From NCBI GenBank assembly GCA_949358305.1, contig OX442315.1, positions 34,684,427 to 34,748,426 of the forward strand: 64,000 nucleotides of DNA, written 5' to 3'. The position numbers were made by a program, and so were the translations under genes. Under the pieces are notes generated by a model. That model was not told the origin of the DNA. It did not search any database and saw nothing but the letters and a program-made list of their open reading frames with translations. Below are positions 12,404 through 62,604 of the stretch, piece by piece (within the stretch, counting starts at the first letter, position 1; each line of letters begins with the position of its first letter). The DNA comes from Strigamia acuminata (lineage: Eukaryota > Arthropoda > Chilopoda > Geophilomorpha > Linotaeniidae).

Positions 12404-12405
12404 CT

Positions 12406-22584: not shown

Positions 22585-23010
22585 ATTATTGGATTGGCAC
22601 AGAGAGTTTTATCATGAAACAACAGCTAAATGAGGATGTGTATTGGAGGTGGAACAACACCGGCCTCGATATAACATATGAAAATTGGTGTCCAAACCAG
22701 CTGGCCACATACGATCTTCATTGTGGATTTGCTAACGCTGCAGAAACAAATGCTTGTTGGATGTATTCAAATTGTCAAAAAAGTAATAAGGTTACAGGCT
22801 TCATTGGTGAAGATAGAATGAATCACACGTCCGATTATAATATTGTGAAGTACAAAGGTCATGAATACTTGGTTTACAATAAAAATCATAAAAAAAGAAG
22901 TTGGTACGAAGCAAAAGATGTATGTCGAAGTAAGAACAAGTATCTTCTTACTCTTGACAGCAATGAAAAAATTGACTTCTTCAACCGAATATTCCGAACT
23001 AAAAATATGA
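22585..23010 (+). CDS. Gene 1 exon a (type A)
   Basis: Acceptor TTTTTAG, donor GTAAGT. Starts YWIGTE, then WRWNNTG, NWCPNQ, ACWMYSNC and GFIGED (glycine where the last CTLD cysteine is expected). After a 13-residue linker it starts the next CTLD (HEYLVYNKN, WYEAKDVC). Closest relative is 59866-60291. Confidence 0.88.
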
Positions 23011-26000
23011 GTAAGTTACTGATTTCTATTAATTAGTAATATTAATAATGTAATTGTATTGAATATCTCCTACAGATGTTTGGGTAGGATTAGAAACTTA
23101 TGGTACAACAGAAAACGGGAACAAGAATATGCATTGGCGCTGGACTGGATCAGGAAACGATATAACTAACGAAAATTGGTGTCCGCACAGCACATTACTG
23201 AAAGAAGGAATGTGTGGCTATGTTACATTTGATTCCACCTGTTGGAAGGCTGAAAGTTGCTTTCAAAATGACATAATGTGCTTTGTTTGTGAAGATAAAA
23301 ATGCCATTTCCAAAACCCCTACCACTATCTCAATTCAAGGTCCAACCTATATCATCCCAGGCCAAAGCACCACATACACAAAAAGAACAGATGATGGTAC
23401 TCGCTATTACTTCTATGACAATACAGTAAGTCAAGCAGAGGCAAATGCAATATTACGAAAAAATGGACACAACCTTGTCACTATTGATGATGCGCACACA
23501 GATGAATTTCTTATGGCTGAAATTAGTAAGAAGCATAAGAGTAAGTACACGAAATCCGTTAATTGTAATGTCGACCAATTATTCAATTTAATTCAATGTT
23601 TAGATTATTGGATTGGTGCAGAAGCTTATACAGCTAATTCAGTGAAACATCAGCAGAATGAGTATATGTATTGGAAATGGAACAACACAGGCCTCGACCT
23701 AGCATATGAAAATTGGTGTCCAGGCCAGACACCAACTAAGAATAATAATTGTGCATTTTACAAAGCTGCAAAAACAGATGCTTGCTGGATGTTTTCCAAT
23801 TGTAAAAAGACGGATTCAATAACAGGTTTCATCGGTGAAGATAGAATTGAGCAAACAACTGATTATACTATTACAAAGTACAAAGGTCATGAATACTTGG
23901 TGTACAATAAAGATAATAGTAAGAGAAGCTGGTACGAAGCTAGAGATGCTTGTCGCAAGAAGAATAAGAATCTTCTCACTCTTGACACCCATGACAAAAT
24001 TGACTTTTTCAACAGAATATTACAAACTAAAAATATGAGTAAGTTACTAAATTTTATGGTATACTAATTTTTTTACATCTTAACTGTTTGCACTATCTCT
24101 TACAGATGTTTGGATAGGATTAGAAACCTATGTTCAAACGGTAGGCGGTAAGAGGTACATTTATTGGCGCTGGAGTGGAACAGAACATGATATCACTTAC
24201 AACAATTGGTGTCCACACAGCACTATGCTAAAAGAAGCTATGTGTGGCTATATCATGATTGAACATACGTGTTGGATGGCAGAACAGTGTATAAAAAATG
24301 ACATAACGAGTTTTATTTGTGAAGATAAACATGCCATTACCAAAACCCCTACCAGTACCTTAGATCATAGTGCAGTCTCCAGCATTAGTACATCTGATGG
24401 TATTCGCTATTATTTCTATGACAATAGAGTAAGTCAAACGGAAGCAAATGCAATATGTAGACAAAATGGGCACAACCTTGTCACTATCGATGATGCAGAC
24501 ACAAGTGATTTTCTTACAGCAGAAATTAAAAAGAAAAATAGAAGTAAGTGTATAATGAAACTCAGGGCTGGACTGGGAAATCTGAATAGATCGGGCTACA
24601 ACAAAAGGAAAAATGGAAACTTACAGCACATACTTCCACATCTCACTCGTCTGGTAATCTTGGTCTCAGAGATCTTGATTTCTTTTACTCTCAGAATCTC
24701 AGTCTCGGCAAAACGAGATTTTATTATTATGGGATATAATAAAAAACATACAATTCACGTTACTAGTCGTAACGTCATTTGTACGATTTTTACTGTATCT
24801 AGTAACGGCTAAAATCTTTAACATTTACTTTAAGTTGTAGACACCTTTTATCCTAAAAAATGACAGTTTCTTTCAAAAGCCCGCCTGATAGCGCATCTCG
24901 GTCTCATACGAGATCTCATCTCGGGAACTGGATCTGGTATCAGAAAACCGAGACTTGAAAATGGCAGGAGATGCTGGAAGCATACTTACAGCATCACGAG
25001 CCAACGGGGAGGTCCAGCACTGATTAGACTTTGAATAAAAAATATAAAATCTGCTAATTGCAAAATTAATATTTAAATTCAATTTAAATTAATTTTCAGA
25101 TTATTGGATCGGCGGTGAAGCTTATTCCATAAAACAAGACCATAATCAGTATGTGTATTGGAAGTGGAACAATACAGGCCTAGATGTAGCATTTGAAAAT
25201 TGGTGTCCCAACCAGATAGCAACAGACGATCTTCTTTGTTCGTATGTTAACGTTGCGGACGAAAATGCTTGCTGGATGTATTCCACTTGTCAGAGATCTG
25301 AGATTGTTACAGGTTTCATCGGAGAAGATAGAATGCATCACACGGCTGATTATGATATTGTGAAGTACAAAGGTCATGAATACTTGGTGTACAACAAAAA
25401 TCATAGAAAGGGTAGTTGGTATGAGGCAAGAGATGCATGTCGTAGCAAGAACAAAGATCTTCTAATTCTTGAAACCTATGAAAAAATTGACTTTTTCAAT
25501 AGAATATTCCGAACAAAAAATATGAGTGAGTTATTTTTTTTTATTTAGTCATTCTTTTCATCTTAATTGTTTTACCTATCTCTTATAGCGATTTGGATAG
25601 GATTAGAAACCTACTTTCAAACAGTAAACAATAACCAGCTACTGTATTGGCGATGGGCTTCAACAGGACAGGATGTAACTTACTACAATTGGTGTCCTCA
25701 GAGCACTCAGATAAAACAATCATTGTGTGGCTACGTCGCACTTGATACAACGTGTTGGATGGCAGAAACATGCACAGAACGAGGCATAATGAGTTTTGTT
25801 TGTGAAGACAAAAAGGCAACTACATTAGTTTCTACTACTACTACCACAACTACGACCACTACAAAAGCCCCTACCACCTCTAGCGTTAGTAAAGTTGATG
25901 GTAGCCATTATTATTTCTACAACAATAGAGTAAGTCAAGTAGAAGCAAATCAAATATGTCATAAAAATGGGCACAACCTTATCACAATTGACGATGAGCA

Positions 26001-26891
26001 GACAAACGTATATCTTACATCTGAAGTTAAAAAAAGAAACAAAAGTAAGCACCAACACAATGGGATATATGATGTTTAATTCAATATCATTAAATTTTTA
26101 GATTATTGGATTGGCACAGAAGCTTATAGTGTGAAACTTGGACCAAATGAATACATTCATTGGAAGTGGAATAACACTGGCCTTGATATATCTTACGAAA
26201 ATTGGTGTCCAAACCAAATTGCAACAGGGGATCTTCCTTGTGCATATATTAATTATACAGATATAAATGCTTGCTGGATGTTTTCAAATTGTCTTCAAGC
26301 TCAAGACATTACAGGCTTCATTTGCGAAGATAAAATACAGCACACGGCTGACTATGATATTATAATGTACAAAGGTTATGAATACTTATTGTACTATAAA
26401 AATCATGTTAAGAACAATTGGTTCGAAGCTAAAGCCGAATGTCGGAGTAAGAATAAGGAACTTCTTACTCTTGACAATAATGATAAAATTTATTTTTTCA
26501 ATGGTGTATTGCAAACAAAAAATATAAGTAAGTTAATGATTTTAATGATTTAGTAATTTTTCTTGTATCGTAATTGTTTTTAATTTCTCCTGTAGCTGCT
26601 TGGGTAGGATTAGAAACCTATGTTCAACTTGTAGATGGTAACAAGTATATGTATTGGCGGTGGACTGCAACAGGACAGGATATAACTTACAAGAATTGGT
26701 GTCCAACCAGCAACCTACAAAAAGAATCTTTGTGTGGCTACATTACGCTTGATCCCATGTGTTGGATGGCAGAAAGGTGCACAAATAATATCGTAATGAG
26801 TTTTATTTGTGAAGACAAACGCGCCCTTCTGTATAATACAGGTCAAAATTTTCAGCACTATTTGGCAATTCCCTACCAAAAAACAAGTTAG
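22585..26891 (+). CDS. C-type lectin array gene 1 (5' end not in view; 8 exons, 7 full CTLDs)
   Basis: Joined exons: 22585-23010, 23076-23540, 23604-24038, 24106-24543, 25100-25525, 25589-26044, 26102-26527, 26596-26891. All introns are phase 1 and the join keeps one frame for 1122 residues plus stop. The first exon holds the back half of a CTLD whose front half must lie in an exon further upstream. Seven CTLDs are then formed across exon junctions. The last exon completes a CTLD (FICEDK) and adds a short tail before TAG, with no membrane anchor, so the product should be secreted or extracellular. AATAAA signals lie at 26916 and 26937. C-type lectin domains act in recognition or adhesion; the usual EPN/QPD and WND residues are missing, so sugar binding is unproven. 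Symbol and species orthologue are unknown. Confidence 0.85.
23076..23540 (+). CDS. Gene 1 exon b (type B)
   Basis: VWVGLETY, WRWTGSG, CWKAESC, FVCEDK, then a linker containing ISIQGPTYIIPGQS rather than a Thr run. The next front half reads ANAILRKNG: Leu replaces the first conserved cysteine. Paralogue: 60357-60821. Confidence 0.88.
23604..24038 (+). CDS. Gene 1 exon c (type A)
   Basis: YWIGAEAY, YWKWNNTG, NWCPGQ, ACWMFSNC, GFIGEDRIEQ. Its domain lacks both the first and last canonical cysteines (see exon b). Paralogue: 61665-62099. Confidence 0.88.
24106..24543 (+). CDS. Gene 1 exon d (type B)
   Basis: VWIGLETY, YWRWSGTEHD, NWCPHS, CWMAEQC, FICEDK, linker ITKTPTSTLDHSA, then RYYFYDNRVSQ and AICRQNG. 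Paralogues: 62167-62604 and the dead copy at 34038-34984. Confidence 0.88.
24563..25022. mobile_element. hAT-like non-autonomous element in intron
   Basis: Ends are CAGGGCTGGACTGG and GGTCCAGCACTG (inverted), flanked by imperfect 8-bp duplications ATGAAACT / ATTAGACT. CAG...CTG ends and an 8-bp target duplication are hAT traits. Copies also at 35004-35539 and, shortened, 41480-41597. Confidence 0.65.
25100..25525 (+). CDS. Gene 1 exon e (type A)
   Basis: YWIGGEAYSIKQDHNQ, YWKWNNTG, NWCPNQ, ACWMYSTC, GFIGED, then HEYLVYNKN. Donor GTGAGT. Paralogue with matching upstream intron: 35617-36042. Confidence 0.88.
25589..26044 (+). CDS. Gene 1 exon f (type B)
   Basis: IWIGLETY, YWRWASTG, NWCPQS, CWMAETC, FVCEDK, then a run of about ten Thr ending KAPTTS, a mucin-like O-glycosylation linker. 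Front half has QICHKNG. Confidence 0.88.
26102..26527 (+). CDS. Gene 1 exon g (type A, keeps last cysteine)
   Basis: YWIGTEAY, HWKWNNTG, NWCPNQ, ACWMFSNC and GFICED: one of only three A exons retaining the canonical cysteine. Paralogue: the truncated exon 36763-37001 plus relic 39432-39603. Confidence 0.88.
26596..26891 (+). CDS. Gene 1 terminal exon (type B back half only)
   Basis: AWVGLETY, YWRWTATG, NWCPTS, CWMAERC, FICEDK, then a tail of about 20 residues ending QKTS and TAG. No linker or following half domain. Confidence 0.88.
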
Positions 26892-26915
26892 GAAAATAAG
26901 ATTGTGACAATAATT

Positions 26916-27880: not shown

Positions 27881-27882
27881 AT

Positions 27883-28664: not shown

Positions 28665-31600
28665 GTATCATAAAATACATTCACAAAATACATTATGGTA
28701 AAGAATCATTTCAAAATATATAATTTATTTTGCAGGATTTTGGTTAGGCTTAATGTCCTTTGTAAAATGGAAGAGGAATTTAGCGTTATCAGCGGTAGAC
28801 TCAACTAAACACCTGGCCTGGTATAGCCCAGTAACTCCATTGATTTTTGATAATTGGTGTGCAAACCAGCCAGTCGATAGACAATTGGGTTCTTATATAT
28901 CCAAAGAGAAATGTTGGAGGAGTTCACATTATAATTCACCAAAGTATACTATTTGTGAAGAAAAGACAATTAAAGTTAAAACTTCACTTTTCTTCGACGA
29001 CAGACTATACTTTTTCTACGAAAGTACAGGAGTTAGTTTTTTTGATGCCTACAGAATGTGTAAAATGAATGAACAGAACTTAGCCAACACTGCTGATAAG
29101 AAATTAGCTATTCATTTGATCAACGAGGCCAAAAAACTAAATAAAAGTCAGTGTTTAAGTTTTGAAATAGACTTTGCTAATTTCTAAGTTTTTAATTTAA
29201 ATAGTAATATTTTTTAAAGTACAAAATTTCAATACTTTTAAAAATGCGTTGTATTTATTAATGATTATAAATACTTCAAACATTTTTATAGATTTCTGGA
29301 TAGGATTGAAAAGCTACGATCCATATGGAAATCCAATATTCAAATGGCACTGGAATAGCACTCGCAATGACTTGTCTTACACAAATTGGTGTGCCCCAGA
29401 AGGCTACAAAGCGGGAAAACGATTCAAGTATCAGTGGTGTGCTTTCATTGATGCGAACAAACAGTGCTGGCAAACAGGAGTATGTGACAGAGACTCAGGA
29501 AATGTGCATGGATTTATTTGCGAAAGTAAGACTCTGAGAACTACTACAACCACAACTCCAAAACCTACAACCACTACCACGATTCCAAAACCTACAACCA
29601 CTACCACAACTACAAAACCTACAACCACTACCACAACTACAAAACCTACAACCACTACCACAACTACAAAACCTACAACAACAACTAAAACTCCAATCAC
29701 CAGTACAGTTCATACCACAGCTGATGGTACCCACTATTATTTCTACGACGGCTCAGTAAGTCAACCAGAGGCAAATGCAATATGTCGACAAGCAGGACAC
29801 AGCCTTGTCACTATTGATGATGTGCAGATATCTGCTTTTCTTACAGCAGAAACTAAAAAGAAAGATAAAAGTAAGTATACAATAGATAATGAATAAATTT
29901 AAATTCAGTTAATTACAATGTTCACGTTTGATCTCAATTTTCAATTTTTAGATTATTGGATTGGCGCAGAAAAAGTGATAAACAGCCATAATGATTGGAA
30001 ATGGAGCAACACCGGCCTTGGTGTAGAGTATCAGAATTGGTGTAGACATGACATAAAAGCAGACGATATCTGTTCATTTCTAAACGCTAAAGAAAAAAAT
30101 GATTGTTGGAGGTATTCAGATTGTAAGCAAACGGCTTCTGTTGGAGGTTTCATTTGTGAAGATAGACTAAAACACACGCCCGACTATGATATTATAATGT
30201 ACAAAGGTCATGAATACTTGTTGTACTACAAAAACCACAAAAAGTATAGTTGGTACGAAGCTAGAGACGTATGTAAAAGTAAGAATAAGTATCTTATCAC
30301 TTTTGACAATGATGAAAAAATGCACTTTTTCAACGGAATATTCCGAGCTAAAAATTTAGGTAAGTTTGTGATTTTCATGAACTGTTCATTTTCTTATGTT
30401 ATAATAATTGTTTTGAATTTCGCTTACAGATGTTTGGATAGGATTAGAGACAGTTGACAATAATAATAACATGTATTGGCATTGGGCTGGAACAGGATAT
30501 AATTTAACTTCCACCAAATGGTGTACTAGCAGCACTCTGCAGAAAGAAGCAAAGTGTGGTTATGTGAAGCTTGAAACCTTGTGTTGGATGGCAGAAAGGT
30601 GCATTCAAAATTACATAACAAGTTTTGTTTGTGAAGATAAAAATGCCAGTAACAAACCTCCTCCTCCTTCCGAAGTTCAAAAGCCAACCACTAGCATTAC
30701 CACACCTGACGGTACTCGCTATTATTTCTATGACATACTGTTTGCAAGTCAACTAGAAGCAAATGCAATATGTCGACAAAATGGGCACAATCTTGTTACT
30801 ATTGACGATTTGCAGATATCTGATTTTCTTACAGCAGAAATTAAAAGAAAGAAAAAAAGTAAGTGCAAAATTAAATATGATTTAGTTGTTGGTTTCATTA
30901 ATCAAGGCAATCTTATAATTTTGAAATCTTAGCAATTTTGCACTTTTGGATTTGTCACGTGGTATCAGTTCCACCAATCATGTGCATAATTGCAAAAACA
31001 CAAAAGAGGAAAAATAAACAATCACAAAATCAAAAGTAGTTTTGCGATTTTAGCAAAATGGCAGCAGCCAAACTCAATCCAAGTGGCCATCACAAATTGT
31101 GATTAACAATTAGTTGCAAAAACAATGTCATGATTTTGCAATTTTGCAATTATTTAAATAGTCACATGACTTCCTATCCACCCCATATTGGGTTTTAGTT
31201 GTACCCTACCAAATTTAAAATGTGATGCAAAATAACTAGTTCTATTTGTGTAATGGAACAAATTTTTTTTAATAAGGTGTATAAACATAAGTTGCACAGA
31301 TTGCACCAGAGTCATTACTTAAGTTTCCTAGCTGTTATACAGTCATGGATGCATCAGCATGTTGATGATACACAAGAATACAAGTTGGCCACTTAGATAG
31401 AGCTTTTATGCCTCCATTTTGTTTTGAGTTTCACAAGCCTCAAAATCACTTCTTATCAAAATCACAAAAACTACCTTTTAGAAGTTTTTAAGATTTTATG
31501 TTTTCACTCTCTTGTAATTTAGTGAATGAGAATGTGATATGTAGAACAGATATCATGTAATCACCTTTTTGGAGGCATCAATAAATACTTAGTTTGTGAT

Positions 31601-37115: not shown

Positions 37116-37444
37116 ACATGCCTTTTTAGGTTAAGAACAATTTTTTTGTAATTTCTTGGGGTTACATTTCAATATTCAAGGTAACAAAAGAAATTTTAGC
37201 ATAATTTACAACCCTTTTAGTTGACTTCGTGTTATGCGTCATTCATCATAGCTCAAAAACTCCTGCTGAATGTTGGCTTTTCCATACATCAATGCCTCAT
37301 TCCACTCGAACACGCAAGTCCCTGCGTCTTACTGTACTAAAACACCCAGGGGCGTATCTAGCTTTTTGGGGGCCCTGTGCATGAGGTTTTTTCGAGGCCC
37401 CTTTATCAAAATATATATATATATATATATACATCCTATATATA

Positions 37445-39173: not shown

Positions 39174-39431
39174 TATATATAGTTAAAAAGACACAATGAC
39201 TTAAATACAGCAGTTTCCGTTCCGGAAACCACCAAATGACATAACCACCGAATGACATAAGATGCTCAACGACAACAAAGATGTCAAGATGGATGTCAAA
39301 TTTTTACACTTATACGTTTTATTGCTTCATAAAACATAACATACTAGCACATTGTGTTGTGTCTTGGGGGCCCCCTAGAACTATTTGCGCTTATGTAGAT
39401 CCGCCCCTGAAAACACCAGTTTTTACACATG

Positions 39432-39603
39432 ATATTATATGATATTATGTACAAAGGTTATGAATATTTATTGCACTATTAAAATCATGTTATGAACAAT
39501 CGGTTCGAAGCTAAAGCCGAATGTCAGAGTAAAAATAAGGAACTTCTTACTCTTGACAATAATGAAAAAATTGATTTTTTTCAATGGTGTATTGCAAACA
39601 AAA
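39432..39603 (+). pseudogene. Relic of the lost half of the gene 2 terminal exon
   Basis: Matches the second half of exon 26102-26527 (MYKGYEYL..., CRSKNKELLTLDNN) but has an in-frame TAA after HY and an extra T in the run before FNGV. It is separated from 36763-37001 by the hAT nest and about 330 bp of other sequence. It abuts the minisatellite. Confidence 0.8.
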
Positions 39604-39607
39604 AATA

Positions 39608-53100: not shown

Positions 53101-56100
53101 AACATGATTTAATAGAAAATCTGTAAATTGCAAAGTTAATGTTTAATTTGAATTTTGTTCAATTTTTAGATTACTGGATTGGTACTGAAGCTTCTCAATA
53201 CCAACAATATGGCCATGAAAATTTGTATTGGAAGTGGAACAACACAGGCCTTACTATATCGTATGAAAATTGGTGTGCGAACAAAATGACCACAATGGAT
53301 CTTCCTTGTTCATTTGTTAATGCCAATGAAACAAATGCTTGCTGGATATTTTCAAACTGCCAAAAAACTAATACTGTTACAGGCTTCATTGGTGAAGACA
53401 GAATTAATCATACACCTGATTATGATATTGTCAAGTATAAAGGTCATGAATATTTGTTGTACAATAAAAATCAGAAAAGTAGTAGTTGGTATGAAGCTAG
53501 AGAAATATGTCGAAGTAAGAACAAGTATCTTCTTATTCTTGACAGCAAGGAAAAAATTGACTTTTTCAATAGAATATTCCGAACAAAACATATGAGTAAG
53601 TCAGTCAACTTTTAAAAGTAATAACTTTGTTCCATTTTAATTGTTTGAATATCTCTTACAGCTGTTTGGTTAGGATTAGAAATCTACTTTCAAACAGTAG
53701 ACGATAATAACAAGCTCACATATTGGCGCTGGGCTGGAACAGGATACAATGTAACTTACAGCAATTGGTGTGATCAGAACACTTTGCAGACAGAAGGAAT
53801 GTGTGGTTACGTCAAACTTGATTCCATGTGTTGGAAGCCAAAGAAGTGCATACAAAGTGATGTAATGAGCTTTGTTTGTCAAGATAAGGATGCAACTCCT
53901 AAAACCCCTACCACTATTCCACTTCAAAAGCCAGTCTCTTACATTACCACTCCTGATGGTGTTCGCTATTATTTCTATGACAACACAGTAAGTCAACCAG
54001 AAGCGAATTCAATATGTCGACAAAATGGGCACAACCTCGTCACTATTGATTATCCGCACATATCTTCTTTTCTTACGGCAGAAATTAAAAGAAGAAATAA
54101 AAGTAAGTAGAAAATGAACATTATTAAATGTAAAATCTATAATTGCAATTGAGAAATTCTAAGTGAATATTCAGTCGCAAATAATACTGTTATTAGTCAT
54201 TTTCAAACCATTGCCACTAGTAGCAAATATTATTGGCATTCAATAAATCGTCTTTAAATTTCTGCTGCCATTGTGGTACATCATGGTTATCATGGTACCT
54301 CATAAGTAGCATCACAAAATACCACAGTATTGTCCAATTAAGAGATGAATATCAGCAATAATATACTGAATTCAATGTGTGATGATTAGATTAGTACAAA
54401 TATTCTTGCCCGATAACATCACGAGTCACCTACACAGACTCTTGATCTTATCTTGAGTGATGGACATACATGTAATCCCGACAATTTATATTTTTTATGT
54501 ACTGGTACTGGCGGCAGTCATCTGGCAACAGGTCATATTACAGTCATATTACAGTCATATTACAGTCATATTACAGTCATATTACAGTCATATTACAATC
54601 ATATTACAGTCATATTACAGTCATATGACAGTCATATTACAGTCATATTACAGTCATATTACAGTCATATTACAGCCAATCTAAAAAGTTTGGAATAATT
54701 CTAAATATTACGCGTTGGGAGTGTATCATTGTTGAAGTCATTTTGGAATCACAGGAAACCTAACACAATAAATGTACCTTTTTTGGAAATTGTGCGATGT
54801 TGCTCAATTAAAAGATATACAATATTACAAACTTTTTGAAAATGATTTTTATTATTTCAAACATCAGATCCCCCAACACTTCAAATCTGCGAATATTCAC
54901 TTAGCATAATTGTTCATTGATTCCAATCTTAAATCCCTGTTCTTCTCTAGTATCAATAATCTTTTGGTGGCAACTCTTACACTTAATCATTTATTCTTTA
55001 TTTAATTATGTACTAATACTCCGTTTTAAGTGGGATTTTAAGTCGGTAACAATTGTTAAAAGAGATAAATATTTAGTTTGGTCCAGTAGCGTATCTAGAC
55101 ATTAATGAGCCAGTGTGCAAGTTGGATGATGGGCCCTTAGCAGAGCCATAGCTAGGATTTTCATCCTCCAAAACCTGTCAAAAAAGGTTTCTTTCATCCT
55201 TCATGGGCCTCCTAAAGCTCGCGGACCCGTGTCCACACACTCACTGCATCCCAATTGCTACACCACTGGTTTGGTCATTACGTATCATGTAAATTGGCTT
55301 GGTTGTCACTCATTTGACTTTTGTCATTGTAGCAATATACATACACACTTTCCCAATCATGTTTAAAGAGACTAGCTATTGAGCATTCATTTTTTTGTCA
55401 TACGGTATGTGGGCAAGAAATAGAGACATCAAAAATAAGGCGATTAATTGTTTGATCTAAAAGTTTGAAAATTTTTTTTATTTTCAACCAAGTTTGAAAG
55501 TTTTTATTTATTTTCAACCAAGTTTGAAAGTTTTTATTTATTTTCAACCAAGTTTGAAAGTTTTTATTTATTTTCAACCAAGTTTGAAAGTTTTTATTTA
55601 TTTTCGACCAAGTTTGAAAGTTTTTATTTATTTTTGACCAAGTTAAAATATCATTTATTTTTTTAAACTGTAAGTGGATAAAAGTATTATCAGCCGGTAA
55701 ACTTTTATTTCCATTCATTATACAGTTTTTGAGTTACATCTAACTAAAGTGAACAACTAGTGATGGGGTGAATAATTTATTTAGTAAGTAAAGGTTACTT
55801 TTCAGCAGAAACTTCCCTGCAAAGCCAAAATTACTTCAAACAATAATGTGCTCAAAAGAATTTGGATTGATACAAACTTTTTGGATTGACTCTAATACAA
55901 GTAATTCTTCCAGTTAGTAGCAACTGGCAACAATCATTTCGCACATCCTCCAGTCAAAATCAAGAGTAGTTTAAAACTGTTATAAGCAAGAAGGAAATAA
56001 AAATAGCAGGACAAACTTTCATTTAAATTTAAATCAATTTTTAGATTATTGGATTGGCATAGAAGCTTATGTAGTTCAAGGCGGACGTAGTGAGATTGTA

Positions 56101-59100
56101 TATTGGAAGTGGAACAACACCAACCTGGAAGTAGCATATGAAAATTGGTGTCCAAACCAGATGACAACAAAAAATTTTCCTTGTGCATTTGTTAATGCTG
56201 CAGAAAAAAATGCTTGTTGGGTGTTTTCAAACTGCCAAAGAACTAATGCTGTTACAGGTTTTATCGGCGAAGATAGAATAAATCATACACCTGATTATGA
56301 TATCATAATGTACAAAGGTCACGAGTACTTGCTGTACAATAAAAATCAGAAAAGGAATAGTTGGTATCAAGCTAGAGAAACATGTCGAAGTAAGAACAAG
56401 AATCTTCTTATTCTTGACAACAATGAAAAAATTGACTTTTTCAACAGAATATTGCGAAACAAAAAAATCAGTAAGTTCACAGCTATATTCAAATAGTCAT
56501 GTTTTAAATGGCGTAGGTTTTTTATTTTTGGTTTTGTGTTTTTTACAACACAAATCAAAAACCCAAACACCTAAAACACTTATTACATAACTTGTTGAAA
56601 GCAGCTATCGATAGTGATTTTTATAAAGAAATAATTTTCTTACCGTATTACCTCACATAAAGCGGCATGCCGTTGGGCATGGGTTTAGCCGGTTTTTAAA
56701 ATTTTGTCCAAAAAGTATACACCGGCATGCCGATATAAAACGAAACATGCCGATATAAAACGAAACATGCCGGTGTAAGTGGAAAAACCTTTTTTTCTTG
56801 TTTTTTTTAAAGAGCCCAGATGAATAATTATATTGAATTTTAGGTCTGAAATTTAAGTTTTATTGATATTCTGAAGATTACTACTAAAATTTGGGAAATG
56901 TTATACAAATTTCCTACATTTTGGACATCAAAAAATGATTTTTTTGGTTGTTTTGTCTAAATTCTTTAAAAAAAAAATTCGTACTCACTTACACCGGCAT
57001 GCCGTTATAAACAAGGTTTATCGGCATGCCGGTATAACTCGAATTATACCGGCATGCGGCTTAATGTGAGGTAATACAGTACATTTTAGTTGTTTTATAC
57101 TTCTCTTACAGCCGTTTGGATAGGATTGGAAATCTACTCTCAAATAGTAGGCTATAACAACTATATGTATTGGCGTTGGGCTGGAACAGGATACAATGTA
57201 ACTTCCAACAATTGGTGTGATCACAAGACTCAGCAGAAAGAAGCAATATGTGGTTACATCACACTTGATACCATGTGTTGGATGGCAGAAAGTTGCACAC
57301 AAAATAATATAATGGGTTTTGTTTGTGAAGACAAACATGCCACTACCAAACCTCCTACCACTACAAAAAACCCTACTACTGCCAAACCTCCTACCACTAC
57401 AAAAAATCCTACCACTGCCAATACTCCTAGAATTCCCATTGCTCAACGCCCGAACTCTAGCATAAAAACAGATGATGGTATTTCCTATTATTTCTATGAC
57501 AATACAGTCAGTCAATCAGAAGCAAATGAAATATGTCGACAAAATGGGCACAACCTTGTTACTATTGATGATGTAGAAACATGTGCTGTTCTTACCGCAG
57601 AAATTAAAAGAAAAAATAGAAGTATGTATACCTTAGTTTAAAATCTGTTGATTGACAATTTTAACATTTAATTTGAATTTCATTCAATTTTTAGATTATT
57701 GGATTGGTACAGAAGCTTATACGGTTCAATACGAACATGGCTATCAATATGTGTATTGGAAGTGGAACAATACTGGTCTCAGTATAGGATATGAAAATTG
57801 GTGTCCAAACCAAATGACCACAATAGAACGTCCTTGCTCATTTGTCAATGTTGCGGATAAAAATGCTTGCTGGATGTTTTCAAACTGTCAAAGAACACAA
57901 ACTGTTACAGGTTTCATCGGTGAAAACAGAATTAATCATACACCAGATTATGATATTGTAAAGTACAAAGGTCATGAATACTTATTGTACAATAAAAATC
58001 GCAAGAAAACTAGTTGGTATGAAGCTAAAGAAATATGTAGAAGTAAGAACAAGTATCTTCTTATTCTTGAAAGTATCGAAAAAATTGACTTTTTCAATAG
58101 AATACTCCGATCAAAAAATTTGAGTAAGTAAGTAGCTGTATTCAAAAAGTCATGTTTTAATTTTAGTGCCTTATGCTGGGTTCCCACTCAACTGAAACAG
58201 AGCAGAAAACCTAGTTTTCTGCCCAGTTTATTTTTTGCTATAACGTCATTCCCTCTTATTTGTACAGAAATAGACACTATTTCTGTTTTTTCTGATGTAG
58301 AAAATACCACAAGCTAATCAAAATCCTTTTTGCCCAATGAAATCATCTTGACCTCTGGTCAACACAATACAATTTTAAACAAAATGGCTCCTGATTTAAA
58401 TGTAACAATGAATTGTTGACAGAAATTGTTGGGTTTTCCAATTTTGTACTACACAAGAGTTAATTTGTATTTTGTATTGATAACTTTATTGTGTGCGATT
58501 TTGGTTCAGGATTTAGATACTTTTTAACTGCATTCGATCGCACAAAAACTGCAAAAATATGCTTGGTTTTTCATCATAACCAAGCAAAGTTAATCAGCTG
58601 AAAACTGGCCGTGTTTGAGCAATCAAATGCGGGCAGTGTTCTGTCGATTATCCATGCTTGGTTTTGACAGCATACAAAGAATTTCTTGCGTGGGAGAATA
58701 TATTCTCCCACGGGAGAATATATTTACTGATGTATAAATAAATTTACAAGTTTGGGCACACATGTTTTACTTATTTTTAGCTATTCTGTGGTATTTACAG
58801 CTGAGTTTTTTAAAAAAAAATTTGCCCACCTTCCTGCCCACTTTAATGTCAGATGGGAACCAGTTGCAGACAAAAAAAATTTTTAATTCTGAATATTTTC
58901 TGCTGCAGAAACATTCAGTCAAGTGGGAACCCAGTACTGTATTATGGTTATTTGTTTTTTTTATACCACAAAATAACTTTTTGAATTCAGATAGTAATTT
59001 TTATCAAATTTTAATTTTGTTATAATTTAATTGTTTGCAATTTCTCTTACAGCTGTTTGGCTAGGATTAGAAACCTATGCTCAAATAGCAGACGATAACA

Positions 59101-62100
59101 ACTACATGTATTGGCGCTGGGCTGGAACAGGAAACAATGTAACTTCCAACAATTGGTGTGATCGCAGCACCTTGCAGAAAGAAGAAATGTGTGGTTACAT
59201 TACACTTGATACAATGTGTTGGATGGCAGAGAGATGCATAAAAAATAATGTAATGAGTTTTGTTTGTGAAGATAAAAATGCTACTGTCAAAACTCCTATC
59301 ATTATCAAACCTCCTACAACTACCAAATGGCATCACCCAGACACTAGTATTACTACAGATGATGGTATTTCCTATTATTTCTACGAGAACACAGTCAGTC
59401 AATCTGAAGCAAATGAAATATGTCGACACAATGGGCACAACCTTGTCACTATTGACGATGTACGAACATGTGCTTTTCTTACGGCAGAAATAAAAAATAA
59501 AAAGAAAAGTACGTATTTGATAGGACATGTAAAATTGTAAATATATAAAATGTGTTAACCCATGTGGTTCTATTGCAAAAATACATTGCAATATATTGCA
59601 ATGTATTATAATGTAGTATGAAATGTATCGACTTTAACAATGTACATGAAAATGAATTTTATTGTACATTTTGTAAAATGCATTTTGAAATGCATTATTT
59701 AATACGTGGATAATATATTCAAATTCTGACAAAAATGAAACATTTTAGAATGCATTTTAAAATGCATTAATTAGACAAATCAAAAATATATTGCAAAATG
59801 TATATTTTCGAAGCATATGGGAATCCCAATGATGATATTATATTTACATTCAATTCAATTTTTAGATTATTGGATTGGTACGGAGAGTTTTGTCATGAGA
59901 CACGATCACGATGAGGTTGTGTATTGGAAGTGGAACAACACTGGCCTCGATATAACGTACGAAAATTGGTGTCCAAACCAGATGACCAAACAAGATCTTC
60001 ACTGTGCATTTGCTAATGCTGCAGAAACAAATGCTTGTTGGATGTATTCAAATTGTCAGAAAACTAATACTGTTGCAGGCTTCATTGGTGAAGATAGAAT
60101 GAATCACACGTCCGATTATAATATTGTGAAGTACCAAGGTCATGAGTACTTGGTTTACAATAAAAATCGTAAAAAGCGAAGTTGGTACGAAGCAAAAGAT
60201 GTATGTCAAAGTAAAAACAAGCATCTTCTGACTCTTGACAGCAATGAAAAAATAGACTTCTTCAACAGAATATTCCGAACTAAAAATATGAGTAAGTTAA
60301 TGATTTCTATTAACTAGTAATATTAATATTGTAATTGTATTGAATATCTTCTACAGATGTTTGGGTAGGAATAGAAACATACATTACACAAGAAAACGAA
60401 AACAAGAATATGCATTGGCGATGGGCTGGATCAGGAAACGATATAACTAACAACAATTGGTGTCCTCAAAGCACTTTACCGAAAGAAGGAATGTGTGGCT
60501 ATGTATCAACCGAACCCACCTGTTGGATGGCTAAAAGTTGTTTTCTACATGACATCATGTCCTTTGTTTGTGAAGATAAAAATGCCACTACCAAAACCCC
60601 TACCACTATCTCAATTCAAGGTCCAATCGATATCATCCCAGGCCAAAGCACCACGTACACGAAAAGAACAGATGATGGTACTCGTTATTATTTCTATGAC
60701 AATACAGTAAGTCAAGCAGAGGCAAATGCAATATTACGAAGATATGGACACAACCTTGTCTCTATTGGTGATGTGCATACAGATGAATTTCTTATCACAG
60801 AAATTAGAAAGAAGTATAAGAGTAAGTATATATATAATGTATATACAGGGTGGTCAGAAAGTCAGGTTCTCAGTAAATAATTCCCAAACTGTTTTAGATG
60901 TTGATTTAGCAAAATGATTGTAAGATGAGTATTTTGGGGGAAATCCAATTATGACATCCAATTTGATCTCAGAGGTCAACTTTAAGGTCATCCGTATTGT
61001 AACTCGAGAACCGTGTCAGATAGAGAGAAAAAGTGAATTAGAAAGTTGTAGAGAACCATCTAATTAATCTAGAACTGTTCATAAAAAAATTATCTCTTTC
61101 TGAAAAGTTTTGAGAAAAAGAGGTTGGAAACATTAGTCTACACAGCTTGTAACCTAAAACTATCATGTTGGAATGTATTTCCAAAATAAATTATTTCTTT
61201 TCTTTTGTGTTTCCTCTCTTCCACTTGCAAGTATGACCCAATAAAGTGTCCTAATTGAGAATTAGTTTGGTTGCCTCAATAGTTTTAGGTTACACAGCTG
61301 AGTTACAAAGCTGAGTAGACTAATGTTTCAAACCTCTTTTTCTCAAAACATTTCAGGAAGAGATAATTTTTTTAAAAACAGTCCTAGACTAATTAGATGG
61401 TGCTCTAAAACTTTCTAATTCACTTTTTCTCTCTATCTGTCACGGTTCTCGAGTTACAATACAGATGACCTTGAAGATGACCTCTGAGGTCAAATTGGAT
61501 GCCATAATTGGATTTCCCCCAAACTACTACCCTTACAATCATTTTGCTAAAATAGCATCTAAAACAGTTTGGGAATTATTTACTGAGAACCAGACTTTCT
61601 GACCACCCTATATAATCTGTTAATTGTAAATTCAACAAATAATTCAATTTAATTCAATGTTTAGATTATTGGATTGGTGCAGAAGCTTATACAGCTAATT
61701 CAGTGAAACATCAGCAGAATGAGTATTTGTATTGGAAATGGAATAACACAGGCCTCAACTTAGCATATGATAATTGGTGTCCAGGCCAGACTTCAACCAT
61801 AGATACTAATTGTGCATTTTACCTTGCAGGAAAAACAGATGCTTGCTGGATGTTTTCCAATTGTAAAAAGACGGATACAATTACAGGTTTCATCGGTGAA
61901 GACAGAATTGAGCAAACAACTGATTATACAATTGCAAAGTACAAAGGTCATGAATACTTGCTGTACAATAAAGATAATAGAAAAGGAAGTTGGTATGAAG
62001 CAAGAGATGCTTGTCGCAAGAAAAACAAGGATCTTCTTACTCTTGACAGCCATGACAAAATTGACTTTTTCAACAGAATATTACACAATGAAAATATGAG

Positions 62101-62604
62101 TAAGTTACTAAATTTTATGGTATACTAATTTTCTTACATCTTAACTGTTTGCACTATCTCTTACAGATGTTTGGATAGGATTAGAAACCTATGTTCAAAC
62201 GGTAGGTGGTAAGAGGTACATTTATTGGCGCTGGAGTGGAACAGAACATGATATCACTTACAACAATTGGTGTCCACACAGCACTGTGCTAAAAGAAGCT
62301 ATGTGTGGCTATATCATGATTGAACATATGTGTTGGATGCCAGAACAGTGTACAAAAAATGACATAATGAGTTTTATTTGTGAAGATAAACATGCCATTA
62401 CCAAAACCCCTACCAGTACCTTAGATCATAGTGCAGTCTCCAGCATTAGTACATCTGATGGTATTCGCTACTATTTCTATGACAATACAGTAAGTCAAAC
62501 GGAAGCAAATGCAATATGTAGACACAATGGGCACAACCTTGTCACTATCGATGATGTAGACACAAGTGATTTTCTTACAGCAGAAATTAAAAAGAAAAAT
62601 AGAA
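40832..62604 (+). CDS. C-type lectin array gene 3 (21 exons in view, at least 20 CTLDs, continues past window)
   Basis: Exons: 40832-41135, 43555-43962, 44029-44466, 45328-45744, 45812-46249, 46827-47258, 47330-47821, 47908-48336, 48405-48842, 52148-52573, 52639-53085, 53170-53595, 53662-54102, 56045-56470, 57112-57621, 57695-58123, 59053-59508, 59866-60291, 60357-60821, 61665-62099, 62167-62604. Together they encode about 3040 residues in one frame, all introns phase 1, with strict A/B alternation. Exon 1 has a signal peptide directly followed by a Thr-rich linker and a CTLD front half. The last visible exon ends in an open half domain, so at least one more A exon lies beyond 64000. The product is predicted to be a very large secreted lectin-like array; function is unknown. 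Many introns carry transposons. Confidence 0.82.
41296..41945. mobile_element. Insertion 1: GGGTGATGGTACT element
   Basis: Flanked by the 7-bp duplication TTAAATT (41289-41295, 41946-41952). Ends are roughly inverted (GGGTGATGGTACT, AGTACAGCAGCCC). TTGGCGCGACA and TGTCGCGCCAA repeats occur inside. It contains degenerate AAAACGTGCAAAA repeats (41680-41800). Confidence 0.7.
41480..41597. mobile_element. Short CTGGACTGG hAT-like copy nested in insertion 1
   Basis: CAGTGCTGGACTGG...CCAGTCCAGCCCTG, flanked by GTCATTTT / GTCATGTT (7 of 8). 118 bp. Confidence 0.65.
42031..42447. mobile_element. Insertion 2: CCGTATTACC MITE
   Basis: Perfect inverted ends CCGTATTACCTCACAT / ATGTGAGGTAATACGG with TA duplication. 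Several CGGCATGCCG palindromes inside. Second copy at 56643-57079. Confidence 0.85.
42561..43330. mobile_element. Insertion 3: TCGCGAAT-rich TIR element carrying a gene fragment
   Basis: Starts TGGGGCGCA, ends GCGCCACCCC, flanked by the 7-bp duplication CAGAAAA (42554-42560, 43331-43337). The empty site is preserved at 46608-46625. Both arms are dense in AATCGCGAAT / ATTCGCGATT. A non-repetitive, higher-GC centre encodes the zinc-finger fragment. Confidence 0.75.
42795..43082 (+). pseudogene. Captured C2H2 zinc-finger gene fragment
   Basis: An ATG-less open frame of 95 codons. In order it has an Asn-rich stretch with NNTNNNNNN, an acidic DDDD, a basic LRVRRKKPL, then TCSVCNRTFINSPYLRIH, the first three zinc ligands of a C2H2 finger. 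It stops at TGA before the second His. Codon and base use differ sharply from the surrounding element. It looks like a piece of a host gene picked up by the transposon. Confidence 0.6.
43555..43962 (+). CDS. Gene 3 exon 2 (type A, keeps last cysteine)
   Basis: YWIGAEKVINSHNDWKWIN, QNWCTHD, ECWKYSDC, GFICED, HEYLLYYKI. Paralogue of 29952-30359. Confidence 0.88.
44029..44466 (+). CDS. Gene 3 exon 3 (type B)
   Basis: VWIGLESY, HWHWAGTGYN, NWCTSS, CWMAERC, FVCEDK, short linker, RYYFYDIQYASQ, AICRQNG. Paralogue of 30430-30858. Confidence 0.88.
44523..45078. mobile_element. ACAGGGTG-family foldback element, right arm truncated
   Basis: Starts CAGGGTGTTCTAAAAGTCTG. Inner arm GAGACAAATCAG is mirrored by CTGATTTGTCTCC near 45000, running to AGTACTAATTTGATGGTG. 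The outer ~200 bp of the right arm are missing. Inserted next to the duplicated intron block 45085-45327. Confidence 0.75.
45328..45744 (+). CDS. Gene 3 exon 4 (type A)
   Basis: YWIGTEAYTDDNGYVYWKW, NWCPNQ, ACWMFSNC, GFIGED, HEYFVYNKT. Donor GTAAAT. Confidence 0.88.
45812..46249 (+). CDS. Gene 3 exon 5 (type B, weak donor)
   Basis: VWIGLETY, NWHWTGIEND, NWCDQG, CWKAVKC, FVCQDK, RYYFYEGTVSQ, AICRTNG. Donor is GTATAC where paralogues have GTAAGC: four bases lost. Read-through adds SIQRDIIE and a stop at 46273. Confidence 0.82.
46282..46775. mobile_element. TIR element, uninterrupted copy
   Basis: TAAGGAATTTCGTTAAATAA ... TCATTTAATGAAACCCTTTA. Serves as empty-site reference for the three insertions in the copy at 41163-43499. 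A related intron (47822-47907) lacks it. Confidence 0.8.
46827..47258 (+). CDS. Gene 3 exon 6 (type A)
   Basis: YWIGTEAYTVQYKARDTE, YWKWNNTG, NWCPDQ, ACWMFSNC, GFIGEDRLYHT, HEYLLYNKN. Confidence 0.88.
47330..47821 (+). CDS. Gene 3 exon 7 (type B, long linker)
   Basis: VWIGLETY, NWRWAGTGDD, NWCDQS, CWKEQRC, FVCEDK, about 35-residue Thr/Pro linker (TTITTPTTTKPTPATPV), RYYFYEGSVSQ. Confidence 0.88.
47908..48336 (+). CDS. Gene 3 exon 8 (type A)
   Basis: YWIGAEVYTVQYGLSIE, YWKWNNTG, NWCSNQ, ACWMFSNC, GFIGEDRLNHT. Confidence 0.88.
48405..48842 (+). CDS. Gene 3 exon 9 (type B)
   Basis: AWIGLETY, YWRWAGTGYN, NWCDKS, CWKAERC, FVCQDK, TPKTPTTIPLQKPSSS linker, RYYFYDNTVSQ. Confidence 0.88.
48888..49460. 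mobile_element. hAT-type element with internal minisatellite
   Basis: CAGTCTTGTATTTAGTTCAC ... GTGAACGAACG...AACACTG, flanked by a perfect 8-bp duplication TTAATTGC (48880-48887, 49461-49468). The paralogous intron at 54103 shows the empty site. Confidence 0.85.
49187..49365. repeat. 20-bp tandem repeat (9 copies)
   Basis: Unit ATGTCATCAAAACGTTTAAA, one copy with a T change. Inside the hAT element. Confidence 0.95.
49469..52147. other. Rest of gene 3 intron 9
   Basis: The first 150 bp match the intron after 54102. A 35-bp repeat lies at 50041-50190, a 16-C run near 50957, and a small inverted pair (ACCGTAAAGCTTCAAAT near 51102, ATTTGAAGCTTTAAGGT near 51343) that may bound a MITE. No gene seen. 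Confidence 0.45.
50041..50190. repeat. 35-bp tandem repeat (4 copies)
   Basis: Unit TATTATTACTTGCAAATCA plus TTGGCATGCTAAAATG, the first copy with 4 extra bases. Confidence 0.9.
52148..52573 (+). CDS. Gene 3 exon 10 (type A)
   Basis: YWIGAEVYVVQHGQAQ, YWKWNNTN, NWCPNQ, ACWMFSNC, GFIGEDKINHT, HKYLLYNKN. Donor GTAAAT. Confidence 0.88.
52639..53085 (+). CDS. Gene 3 exon 11 (type B)
   Basis: VWIGLETY, YWRWDGTGSN, KWCSSS, CWMAGKC, FVCEDK, TDTTTTAVQKPVSS linker, RYYFYETSVNQ, AICRKNG. Donor GTATGT. Confidence 0.88.
53170..53595 (+). CDS. Gene 3 exon 12 (type A)
   Basis: YWIGTEASQYQQYGHE, YWKWNNTG, NWCANK, ACWIFSNC, GFIGED, HEYLLYNKN. Confidence 0.88.
53662..54102 (+). CDS. Gene 3 exon 13 (type B)
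   Basis: VWLGLEIY, YWRWAGTGYN, NWCDQN, CWKPKKC, FVCQDK, TPKTPTTIPLQKPVSY linker, RYYFYDNTVSQ, SICRQNG. Confidence 0.88.
54531..54675. repeat. 11-bp tandem repeat (about 13 copies)
   Basis: Unit CAGTCATATTA with rare substitutions, in intron 13 of gene 3. Confidence 0.95.
55084..55268. mobile_element. 185-bp hAT-type MITE
   Basis: CAGTAGCGTATCTAG ... TTGCTACACCACTG with a perfect 8-bp duplication GTTTGGTC (55076-55083, 55269-55276). Confidence 0.85.
55459..55645. repeat. 30-bp tandem repeat (about 6 copies)
   Basis: Unit CAAGTTTGAAAGTTTTTATT plus TATTTTCAAC. It creates a false reverse-strand ORF because 30 is a multiple of 3. Confidence 0.93.
56045..56470 (+). CDS. Gene 3 exon 14 (type A)
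   Basis: YWIGIEAYVVQGGRSE, YWKWNNTN, NWCPNQ, ACWVFSNC, GFIGED. Downstream intron parallels 36043-36240. Confidence 0.88.
56643..57079. mobile_element. CCGTATTACC MITE, second copy
   Basis: Same family as 42031-42447; TA duplication at 56641 and 57080. The paralogous intron of gene 2 near 36209 reads through the empty site. Confidence 0.87.
57112..57621 (+). CDS. Gene 3 exon 15 (type B, longest linker)
   Basis: VWIGLEIY, YWRWAGTGYN, NWCDHK, CWMAESC, FVCEDK, then repeated PPTTTKNPTTA blocks, YYFYDNTVSQ, EICRQNG. Donor GTATGT. 170 codons. Confidence 0.88.
57695..58123 (+). CDS. Gene 3 exon 16 (type A)
   Basis: YWIGTEAYTVQYEHGYQ, YWKWNNTG, NWCPNQ, ACWMFSNC, GFIGENRINHT, HEYLLYNKN. Confidence 0.88.
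58176..58934. mobile_element. TIR element in gene 3 intron 16
   Basis: Inverted ends CTGGGTTCCCAC and GTGGGAACCCAG, with AGAAAA/TTTTCT similarity continuing inward. 759 bp, no ORF. No clear target duplication. Confidence 0.65.
59053..59508 (+). CDS. Gene 3 exon 17 (type B)
   Basis: VWLGLETY, YWRWAGTGNN, NWCDRS, CWMAERC, FVCEDK, linker with KWHHPDTS like gene 2 exon 11, YYFYENTVSQ, EICRHNG. Donor GTACGT. Confidence 0.88.
59866..60291 (+). CDS. Gene 3 exon 18 (type A)
   Basis: YWIGTESFVMRHDHDE, YWKWNNTG, NWCPNQ, ACWMYSNC, GFIGED. Duplicate of gene 1 exon a. Confidence 0.88.
60357..60821 (+). CDS. Gene 3 exon 19 (type B)
   Basis: VWVGIETY, HWRWAGSGND, NWCPQS, CWMAKSC, FVCEDK, ISIQGPIDIIPGQS linker, ANAILRRYG (first cysteine replaced by Leu). 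Duplicate of gene 1 exon b. Confidence 0.88.
60846..61610. mobile_element. ACAGGGTG-family foldback element in gene 3 intron 19
   Basis: CAGGGTGGTCAGAAAGTC ... GACTTTCTGACCACCCT with about 300-bp inverted arms (GAGGTCAA/TTGACCTC, AGAAAAAGTGAATTAGAAAG) and TA-rich flanks. Gene 1's matching 63-bp intron (23541-23603) is the empty site. Confidence 0.87.
61665..62099 (+). CDS. Gene 3 exon 20 (type A)
   Basis: YWIGAEAYTANSVKHQQNE, YWKWNNTG, NWCPGQ, ACWMFSNC, GFIGEDRIEQ. Duplicate of gene 1 exon c. Confidence 0.88.
62167..62604 (+). CDS. Gene 3 exon 21 (type B, last in window)
   Basis: VWIGLETY, YWRWSGTEHD, NWCPHS, CWMPEQC, FICEDK, TSTLDHSA linker, AICRHNG. Donor GTAAGT. Duplicate of gene 1 exon d; the partner A exon must lie beyond 64000. 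Confidence 0.87.

What the first reader, a model, noticed from the sequence alone, without database searches (positions are those of the whole stretch)
22585..62604. Giant lectin arrays built from two alternating half-domain exon types
Seen: 41 exons in three genes, all phase 1-1, every intron cutting a CTLD just before WIGxE. Exon types A and B alternate without exception, and no exon holds a whole domain. Known: multi-CTLD proteins such as the mannose receptor exist, but 20 or more CTLDs in one protein is far larger. Inference: any A+B pair can be added, lost or skipped without changing frame, and skipping a single exon would make a chimeric CTLD. The locus could therefore diversify by recombination or splicing.
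Basis: partly seen in the sequence, partly recalled or inferred. Interest (0 to 1): 0.9.

Follow-up and report, generated by a model that had tools for sequence, protein, structure and literature searches.

The report
Giant seventy-domain centipede lectin locus
In a centipede's genome, two alternating exon types that each carry two half-domains are strung together into predicted secreted lectin-like proteins of up to about 70 domains, and neighbouring gene copies differ by in-frame gain, loss and fusion of these exons, which makes the locus a natural test of how giant repeat proteins grow.

Summary
[quoted passage not shown] The genome matches Strigamia acuminata (centipede), chromosome 2. The window is a slice of a ~245 kb cluster. 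Gene models: gene 1 has 29 CTLDs (4,258 aa), gene 2 11, gene 3 70 (71 exons, 10,723 aa, ~1.24 MDa), and an upstream gene F 16. All 126 introns of these models are GT-AG and phase 1; no model has an internal stop; dN/dS is 0.34-0.46 in frame, 0.6-1.2 in shifted frames. Exons fall into 12 ordered subtypes: gene 1 has each A subtype once, in order; genes 2 and F lack stretches; gene 3 has block a8-a12 three times and amplified one A+B unit (neighbouring copies up to 99.9% identical). Three exons switch subtype inside the exon, so exchange is homologous unequal crossing-over, not only intron-to-intron shuffling. Six A/B-fused exons upstream break strict alternation. No RNA was available: the joins are models, and splicing diversity is untested. 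Function is inferred: probably secreted, calcium-site motifs lost; an adhesive or barrier secretion is my first guess.

The parts
22585..23010 (+). Gene 1 (G1) exon 23 of 30, type A, subtype a9
23076..23540 (+). G1 exon, type B, b9
23604..24038 (+). G1 exon, type A, a10
24106..24543 (+). G1 exon, type B, b10
25100..25525 (+). G1 exon, type A, a11
25589..26044 (+). G1 exon, type B, b11
26102..26527 (+). G1 exon, type A, a12
26596..26891 (+). G1 terminal exon (b12): beta C-half, tail FQHYLAIPYQKTS, stop
   Evidence: similar tail in S. maritima P0001 (FQHYLAVPYHKGK) and inside P0005
28436..28664 (+). Gene 2 (G2) exon 1: signal-peptide-like start and N-half of CTLD 1
   Evidence: similar head in S. 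maritima P0005
28736..29146 (+). G2 exon 2: C-half of CTLD 1, N-half of CTLD 2
29292..29870 (+). G2 exon 3 (b0): C-half of CTLD 2, Thr-rich linker, N-half of first alpha domain
   Evidence: 27-bp repeat 29549-29679
29952..30359 (+). G2 exon, type A, a1
30430..30858 (+). G2 exon, type B, b1
32027..32443 (+). G2 exon, type A, a2
32513..32971 (+). G2 exon, type B, chimera: b2 front, b3 back
   Evidence: 49 of 51 diagnostic sites fit one switch between exon positions 187 and 201
33058..33489 (+). G2 exon, type A, a4
   Evidence: an a4/a2 mosaic was tested and not supported
33556..34032 (+). G2 exon, type B, b4
34047..34983 (+). Broken B exon (front piece reads like b10) in pieces, between two G2 exons; left out of the model
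35617..36042 (+). G2 exon, type A, chimera: a11 front, a7 back
   Evidence: 60 of 60 diagnostic sites fit one switch between exon positions 94 and 119
36241..36696 (+). G2 exon, type B, possible b7/b8 mosaic, similar in gene F
   Evidence: 38 of 42 sites fit one switch (gene F 36 of 42); grouped with the gene F exon in the B tree
36763..37001 (+). G2 last exon (a12, truncated): alpha C-half ending GFIGENKI, stop; same ending in gene F
37436..39182 (.). Inserted element with 479-nt inverted arms (96% complementary), between the truncated a12 exon and its decayed back half
39438..39609 (+). Decayed back half of the truncated A exon
39609..40531 (.). 20-bp minisatellite, 46 copies, upstream of the gene 3 head
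40832..41135 (+). Gene 3 (G3) exon 1 of 71: signal-peptide-like start joined directly to a Thr linker and alpha N-half (exon 1/exon 3 fusion)
   Evidence: 600 nt upstream plus 63 nt coding 86.5-89% identical to the other three heads
43555..43962 (+). G3 exon A, a1
44029..44466 (+). G3 exon B, b1
45328..45744 (+). G3 exon A, a2
45812..46249 (+). G3 exon B, b2
46827..47258 (+). G3 exon A, a3
47330..47821 (+). G3 exon B, b3
   Evidence: used as a chimera control, where it also scored (60 of 76 sites)
47908..48336 (+). G3 exon A, a4
48405..48842 (+). G3 exon B, b4
   Evidence: both halves; in the tree it lies with the b4 exons of genes 1 and 2 and with gene 3's b6
52148..52573 (+). G3 exon A, a5
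52639..53085 (+). G3 exon B, b5
   Evidence: both halves; gene 1's b5 (34667276) pairs with it in the tree
53170..53595 (+). G3 exon A, a6
53662..54102 (+). G3 exon B, b6
   Evidence: both halves; the tree groups it with b4 exons, not with the b6 exons of genes F and 1
56045..56470 (+). G3 exon A, a7
57112..57621 (+). G3 exon B, b7
57695..58123 (+). G3 exon A, a8
59053..59508 (+). G3 exon B, b8
59866..60291 (+). G3 exon A, a9
60357..60821 (+). G3 exon B, b9
61665..62099 (+). G3 exon A, a10
62167..62604 (+). G3 exon B, b10; 50 more G3 exons follow beyond the window to contig position 34779382
11269..21609 (+). LTR retroelement with two 1,135-nt direct repeats 99.9% identical, inside the 31-kb intron modelled for gene 1
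   Evidence: reverse transcriptase, RNase H and integrase zinc-binding pieces

Best explanation
This is a tandem cluster of genes for giant, beads-on-a-string CTLD proteins in the centipede Strigamia acuminata. Shown from the sequence: one phase-1 intron sits inside every CTLD of the models, so each exon carries the back half of one domain, a linker and the front half of the next; type A holds alpha-back/beta-front, type B beta-back/alpha-front; gene copies carry the same ordered subtypes with runs missing, repeated or fused. Inferred from that: because units share length modulo 3 and phase, homologous unequal crossing-over anywhere in the unit, in introns or inside exons, adds, deletes or fuses units without breaking frame or fold order; an ordered 12-subtype gene (like gene 1) was trimmed to genes F and 2 and inflated to gene 3 (70 CTLDs). 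Inferred: constitutive joining of the intact exons to one mRNA per gene, and secretion. Inferred, weaker (about 0.35): the products are multivalent extracellular polymers, part of an adhesive or barrier secretion of epidermal glands.
For: 130 exons, 126 introns, all phase 1 and GT-AG; four models without internal stops, 1,653-10,723 aa. Pfam: 11 Lectin_C stretches in gene 2. Purifying selection: 12 matched A exons G1/G3 dN/dS 0.34 in frame, 1.06 and 0.98 in shifted frames; 11 matched B exons 0.46 against 1.03 and 0.64. Ordered subtypes shared among genes (trees; half-exon mapping). Intra-exon switches. Tandem A+B units: four neighbouring pairs of 1,035-bp units at 99.7-99.9%, four pairs of 1,095/1,167-bp units at 99.4-99.7%. 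Hydrophobic signal-peptide-like start at all four heads, judged by eye and hydropathy (no predictor run); elsewhere the highest 19-residue mean is 1.08 (gene 3 scanned without its last A exon). S. maritima relatives P0001 and P0005 share A, B and tail, P0005 also the head. Calcium/sugar site-2 motifs: EPN/QPD-like in 1 of 123 C-halves, ND after the CW in 0 of 123 (the three exon-2 halves not included). Secretion hint: telopodal glue of the centipede Lithobius forficatus contains CTLD proteins with large disordered parts (PMC11170834, passages); two left-end exons of this cluster have long low-complexity repeats next to CTLD halves.
Against: No RNA or protein evidence: every join is a model, and broken exons were left out by choice. 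The 31-kb intron of gene 1 (repeats and a young LTR element) might split it in two. Gene 2 and gene F share a premature stop in a12 and could be decaying. Chimera candidates were picked; one of three controls also scored (60 of 76 sites, p<=0.0005), so the weaker mosaics (b7|b8, b9|b7) are not secure. In the B tree b4 and b6 exons are partly mixed. The 99.9% repeats rest on the public assembly. Nothing at the locus itself points to a gland.
Confidence: 0.7

Rival explanations
1. Diversity generator: exons are chosen or skipped during splicing, so one locus makes many lectins with chimeric CTLDs, a lectin counterpart of Dscam.
For: Every single-exon (69 of 69) and adjacent-pair skip (68 of 68) of gene 3 stays open; many introns are only 55-90 nt. 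Duplicated Dscam exons of S. maritima are described as possibly mutually exclusive (PMC4244043, passages).
Against: Open frames follow from phase-1 symmetry and show no usage. Purifying selection across matched exons fits constitutive use but does not exclude choice. No docking or selector elements were looked for.
Confidence: 0.15
2. Humoral immune lectins: giant opsonins or agglutinins selected for binding many microbes.
For: CTLD proteins are often reported as arthropod immune factors (search listing and starts of abstracts only); subtypes differ, and B exons have higher dN/dS than A (0.46 against 0.34).
Against: Canonical EPN/QPD and WND motifs are nearly or wholly absent; no matched set has in-frame dN/dS above 1, and over all pairs only 0.6% of B pairs and no A pair do, though averages cannot exclude single selected sites; the newest units are near-identical copies, which adds valency, not diversity.
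Confidence: 0.25
3. Largely a decaying or misassembled repeat array in which only short genes are expressed.
For: Broken exon pieces (window 34047-34983, 39438-39609; gene F 34629712-34629978), premature stop in gene 2 and F, many repeats and transposable elements.
Against: Genes 1 and 3 contain no broken exon at all, and matched exons are constrained. The broken pieces of F and gene 2 can be skipped with A/B order kept; that they are skipped is assumed. The assembly is described as 98-fold HiFi with QV 59.6 (PMC10556566), and the near-identical stretches (5-6 kb each) are shorter than usual HiFi reads (recalled).
Confidence: 0.12

Closest known systems
Mannose receptor family (group VI: MRC1, MRC2, PLA2R, DEC-205)
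   Same: One chain with many CTLDs. Best PDB sequence matches are PLA2R and MRC1 for the S. maritima beta domain and a yolk-sac IgY receptor, PLA2R, MRC1 and MRC2 for an alpha domain that I composed from several exons; distant database hits are 'macrophage mannose receptor 1-like' (21-24% identity).
   Different: Group VI has 8 or more CTLDs; the largest in the passages seen is a predicted Fugu DEC-205-FUSE gene with 15, or 12 in a later assembly (PMC514892). Here 11 to 70, no ricin-type or fibronectin II domain found in gene 2, no second hydrophobic segment, two alternating domain types split over half-domain exons.
S. maritima T1JH15 and T1JGV9 (P0001, P0005), uncharacterised
   Same: A and B exon products and FQHYLA tail, in P0005 also the head, 45-58% identity.
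Lithobius forficatus telopodal glue lectin-PGs
   Same: Centipede secreted proteins with CTLD and large disordered parts (PMC11170834, passages).
Flatworm adhesive proteins Mlig-ap1/ap2
   Same: Giant secreted repetitive proteins (5,407 and 14,794 aa; [quoted passage not shown] PMC6410801, passages).
   Different: The repeat unit there is not described as a CTLD; no sequence relation was tested.
Arthropod Dscam
   Same: Tandem duplicated exons that encode part of a domain (PMC4244043, passages).
   Different: Immunoglobulin fold and membrane receptor; here order and phase suggest joining of all exons, splicing choice untested.

Membership tests
C-type lectin-like domain (PF00059) | Pfam Lectin_C profile matched over the domain | tested here: met
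   11 stretches in the gene 2 protein, E 8.4e-91; the other gene models were not scanned with Pfam
Canonical calcium-dependent sugar-binding C-type lectin | EPN/QPD and WND motifs of calcium site 2 (motifs recalled) | tested here: not met
   EPN/QPD-like in 1 of 123 C-halves, ND after CW in 0 of 123
Mannose receptor group VI | At least 8 CTLDs in one chain | tested here: met
   11, 16, 29 and 70 in the four gene models; gene models only, no cDNA
Mannose receptor group VI | N-terminal ricin-type and fibronectin II domains (recalled) | tested here: not met
   Pfam scan of gene 2 shows no such domain; other genes not scanned
Mannose receptor group VI | Transmembrane segment | tested here: not met
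   Hydropathy scan of four proteins: maximum 1.08 after residue 40 (gene 3 without its last A exon)
Dscam-type exon choice | Mutually exclusive splicing of duplicated exons | not testable with these tools
   No RNA data; only frame compatibility computed
Centipede glue lectin-PG | CTLD together with large disordered regions in one secreted protein | tested here: inconclusive
   Long low-complexity stretches in two neighbouring cluster exons; linkers of 22-101 residues, 31% Thr, in 55 of 57 B exons; disorder, secretion and homology not shown
Centipede glue lectin-PG | Presence in the gland secretion | not testable with these tools
   No expression or proteome data

The most novel reading that the evidence does not exclude
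The locus is a lectin hypervariability machine: unit number and exon chimeras differ between individuals through frequent unequal crossing-over, and half-domain exons are also combined by splicing, so that each animal makes its own set of giant chimeric CTLD chains.
Probability: 0.17. Interest if true: 0.92.

Novelty: new variant of a known kind. Interest (0 to 1): 0.72.

Why it matters
It gives a readable record of how a giant repeat protein grows: an ordered 12-subtype gene, shorter and longer relatives next to it, exon fusions caught with their breakpoints, and near-identical new units. It shows that exons need not match domains to be modular: one phase-1 intron inside the domain makes recombination frame-safe across the unit. 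If unit number varies between individuals, the locus allows direct measurement of unequal crossing-over in a coding array, and the products (up to 1.24 MDa, predicted) may be a new class of bioadhesive or barrier polymer.

Tried and rejected
A bryozoan origin was considered from genome size and COI and dropped when the protein search found S. maritima and the published S. acuminata assembly matched in span, mitochondrial length and chromosome length. An AlphaFold2 model of P0001 failed (mean pLDDT 37.9), so no fold search was made; an earlier alignment meant for it (A1) placed the A exons on the wrong half and was replaced by A2. The idea that genes 2 and 3 are one gene broken by insertions was rejected when the gene 3 head with its own signal-peptide-like start was found. 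The first gene 3 model missed the last A exon through a range cut of mine; one search corrects it (71 exons); others (hydropathy; all-pair dN/dS) were run without that exon and not repeated. An a4/a2 mosaic in exon 33058 was not supported, and one further candidate seen (gene 3 exon at window +77584) was not tested. The linker numbers printed at the end come from a faulty pattern and are not used; one search replaces them. Pfam also lists LonB_AAA-LID above its cut-off in the Thr-rich stretch with no passing stretch; taken as noise. Two broad literature searches gave nothing on topic.

Full report
Origin. The window is contig C3, 34684427-34748426 + strand, of a 237,517,015-base genome. C3 is 37,788,348 bases and the mitochondrial contig 15,068 bases, with COI open under the invertebrate mitochondrial code (other codes that read TGA as Trp are open too). 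Strigamia acuminata qcStrAcum1.1 has span 237.5 Mb, mitochondrion 15.07 kb and chromosome 2 of 37.79 Mb (PMC10556566, first of three parts of the text read). The identification rests on these matches and on S. maritima being the nearest protein hit.

Exons. Profiles of the four half-domains (A front, A back, B front, B back) made from window exons were run over six frames of the window and of 308 kb of the chromosome. There, 300 hits over 12 bits remained after overlap removal, all on the + strand, between 34534572 and 34779301, about 245 kb. In the window they give 41 intact exons. Exon A is the back half of domain alpha and the front half of beta; exon B the back half of beta, a linker and the front half of alpha. 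A whole-genome search with one B exon (153 matches, list cut, best candidates only) placed all listed matches but one in this cluster; the exception is a weak C5 hit with a stop.

Genes. Gene F 34624598-34636601 (17 exons, 2,347 aa), gene 1 34646048-34711317 (30, 4,258), gene 2 34712862-34721427 (12, 1,653), gene 3 34725258-34779382 (71, 10,723). All four start with a hydrophobic, signal-peptide-like stretch (no predictor run); 600 nt of 5' DNA with 63 nt of coding sequence are 84-94% identical among the four. Gene 3's head joins that stretch straight to the Thr linker of exon 3. Left of gene F, five further head exons and one with a stop, and four tail motifs, were found; these small genes were not modelled in full. 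Two exons there carry long low-complexity repeats beside CTLD halves. The models leave out two broken exons inside gene spans (F 34629712-34629978; gene 2, window 34047-34983) and remnants behind the stops of F and gene 2; genes 1 and 3 contain none. Gene 1 spans a 31-kb intron (window 1-22584 plus 8.4 kb upstream) in which lie an LTR element with 99.9% identical repeats, a GC-rich 53-bp satellite and other repeats. That gene 1 continues across it is inferred from the subtype order, b8 before and a9 after.

Reality of the protein. For 12 matched A exons of genes 1 and 3, dN/dS is 0.34 in frame and 1.06 and 0.98 in the shifted frames; for 11 B exons 0.46, 1.03 and 0.64. Gene 1 against F (5 A exons) and against gene 2 (3 A exons) gives 0.35; two B exons against gene 2 give 0.46. 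Over all usable pairs the medians are 0.33 (A, 1,454 of 1,485 pairs) and 0.47 (B, 1,549 of 1,596); 0.6% of B pairs exceed 1 (made before the last A exon of gene 3 was added). Pfam counts 11 Lectin_C stretches in gene 2.

How it grew. The A-exon tree (64 rows) and B-exon tree (62 rows) give subtypes; mapping each half-exon to gene 1 gives gene 1 = a1 to a12 in order; gene F = a1 a2 a3 a6 a7 a12; gene 2 = a1 a2 a4 a7 (an a11|a7 chimera) a12; gene 3 = a1 to a11, twelve a12-like units, a8-a11, three a12-like, a8-a11, a12. Not every label is firm: in the B tree gene 3's b6 lies with b4 exons, although its halves map to b6, and the B exons of the a12-like units map only weakly (0.81-0.87 in most halves). 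That gene 1 shows the older state is inferred. Where stretches are missing, the join can lie inside an exon: gene F b3|b5 is followed by a6, and gene 2 b2|b3 is followed by a4, as expected if one crossing-over removed what lay between. Seven candidate chimeras picked were tested with sites fixed between the parent subtypes: 49 of 51 (b2|b3), 100 of 102 (b3|b5) and 60 of 60 (a11|a7) fit a single switch; b7|b8 fits 36 and 38 of 42 (F, gene 2), b9|b7 70 of 82, each p<=0.0005 by shuffling sites; a4|a2 was not supported (46 of 59, p=1). Of three controls two were not significant and one was (60 of 76, p<=0.0005), so only the first three are claimed. Fusions of A front with B back, three each in gene F and gene 1, repeat an alpha-only unit. 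In gene 3 the units starting at 34749538 to 34753678 are 99.7-99.9% identical over four neighbouring pairs, those starting at 34755898 to 34760422 99.4-99.7% over four pairs with length differences of 72 nt; the pairs joining and ending these runs are 93-97%, and the next ones outside about 76%. These are recent and predict copy-number variation, which I could not test.

Relatives. Three searches of 5.8 billion proteins found two S. maritima proteins (45-58% identity) and otherwise four distant mannose-receptor-like proteins (21-24%). The two S. maritima A exons branch with five of the six left-end A exons (support 80/90, below the starred level, with long branches), so the short gene (head, A, B, tail) may be older than the arrays. 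Whether S. maritima has long arrays is open: candidates are limited by length and its models are automated.

Function. The proteins have a signal-peptide-like start and no further strong hydrophobic segment, Thr-rich linkers (22-101 residues, 31% Thr, 55 of 57 B exons measured) and lack calcium-site motifs in nearly all C-halves. Multivalency without diversity in the newest units fits a structural or adhesive polymer better than a repertoire. Centipedes offer a precedent: lectin-PGs in the telopodal glue of Lithobius (PMC11170834, passages), and sternal defensive glands in geophilomorphs (PMC11170834 and PMC8056527, passages). I put about 0.35 on the adhesive or barrier reading; it is a lead, not a result.

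Novelty. Searches for multi-CTLD, tandem-CTLD and centipede lectin papers showed no title or abstract start about this locus or a protein with tens of CTLDs; the listings were cut (12 of 158; 15 of 28; 12 of 80; 10 of 17), and one search found none. The largest number seen is 15 in a predicted fish gene (PMC514892, passages). The S. maritima genome paper has no word beginning 'lectin' in its main text. Most subscription papers and all preprints are outside that library.

Noticed in passing
window 11269-21609: LTR retroelement with two 1,135-nt repeats 99.9% identical, set in a 26-bp AT-rich tandem repeat on both sides, inside the modelled gene 1 intron; looks like a young insertion.
   Followed up: partly
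window 4925-8113: GC-rich 53-bp/463-bp satellite (5224-7743) flanked by inverted arms (90-97% complementary) in an AT-rich window; perhaps a transposon with an internal satellite.
   Followed up: no
window 27884-28140 and 39609-40531: The same kind of 20-bp minisatellite lies just upstream of the gene 2 and gene 3 heads; similar repeat translations precede the heads of genes F and 1. Possible recombination or expression element.
   Followed up: no
contig C3 34585170-34587340 and 34594686-34595821: Cluster exons with CTLD halves beside long repeats (NKDPNS and KPEVGPPEDKFDAAHPSN), resembling the described lectin-PG architecture.
   Followed up: no
window 36763-37001 and contig C3 34636363-34636601: Genes 2 and F end at the same premature stop in a12, with decayed remnants behind it; both would still close a complete last alpha domain.
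   Followed up: partly
window 123-4157: Long open frames in the gene 1 intron: 515 aa with integrase domains, and a 570-aa frame with no Pfam match at E 0.001.
   Followed up: partly
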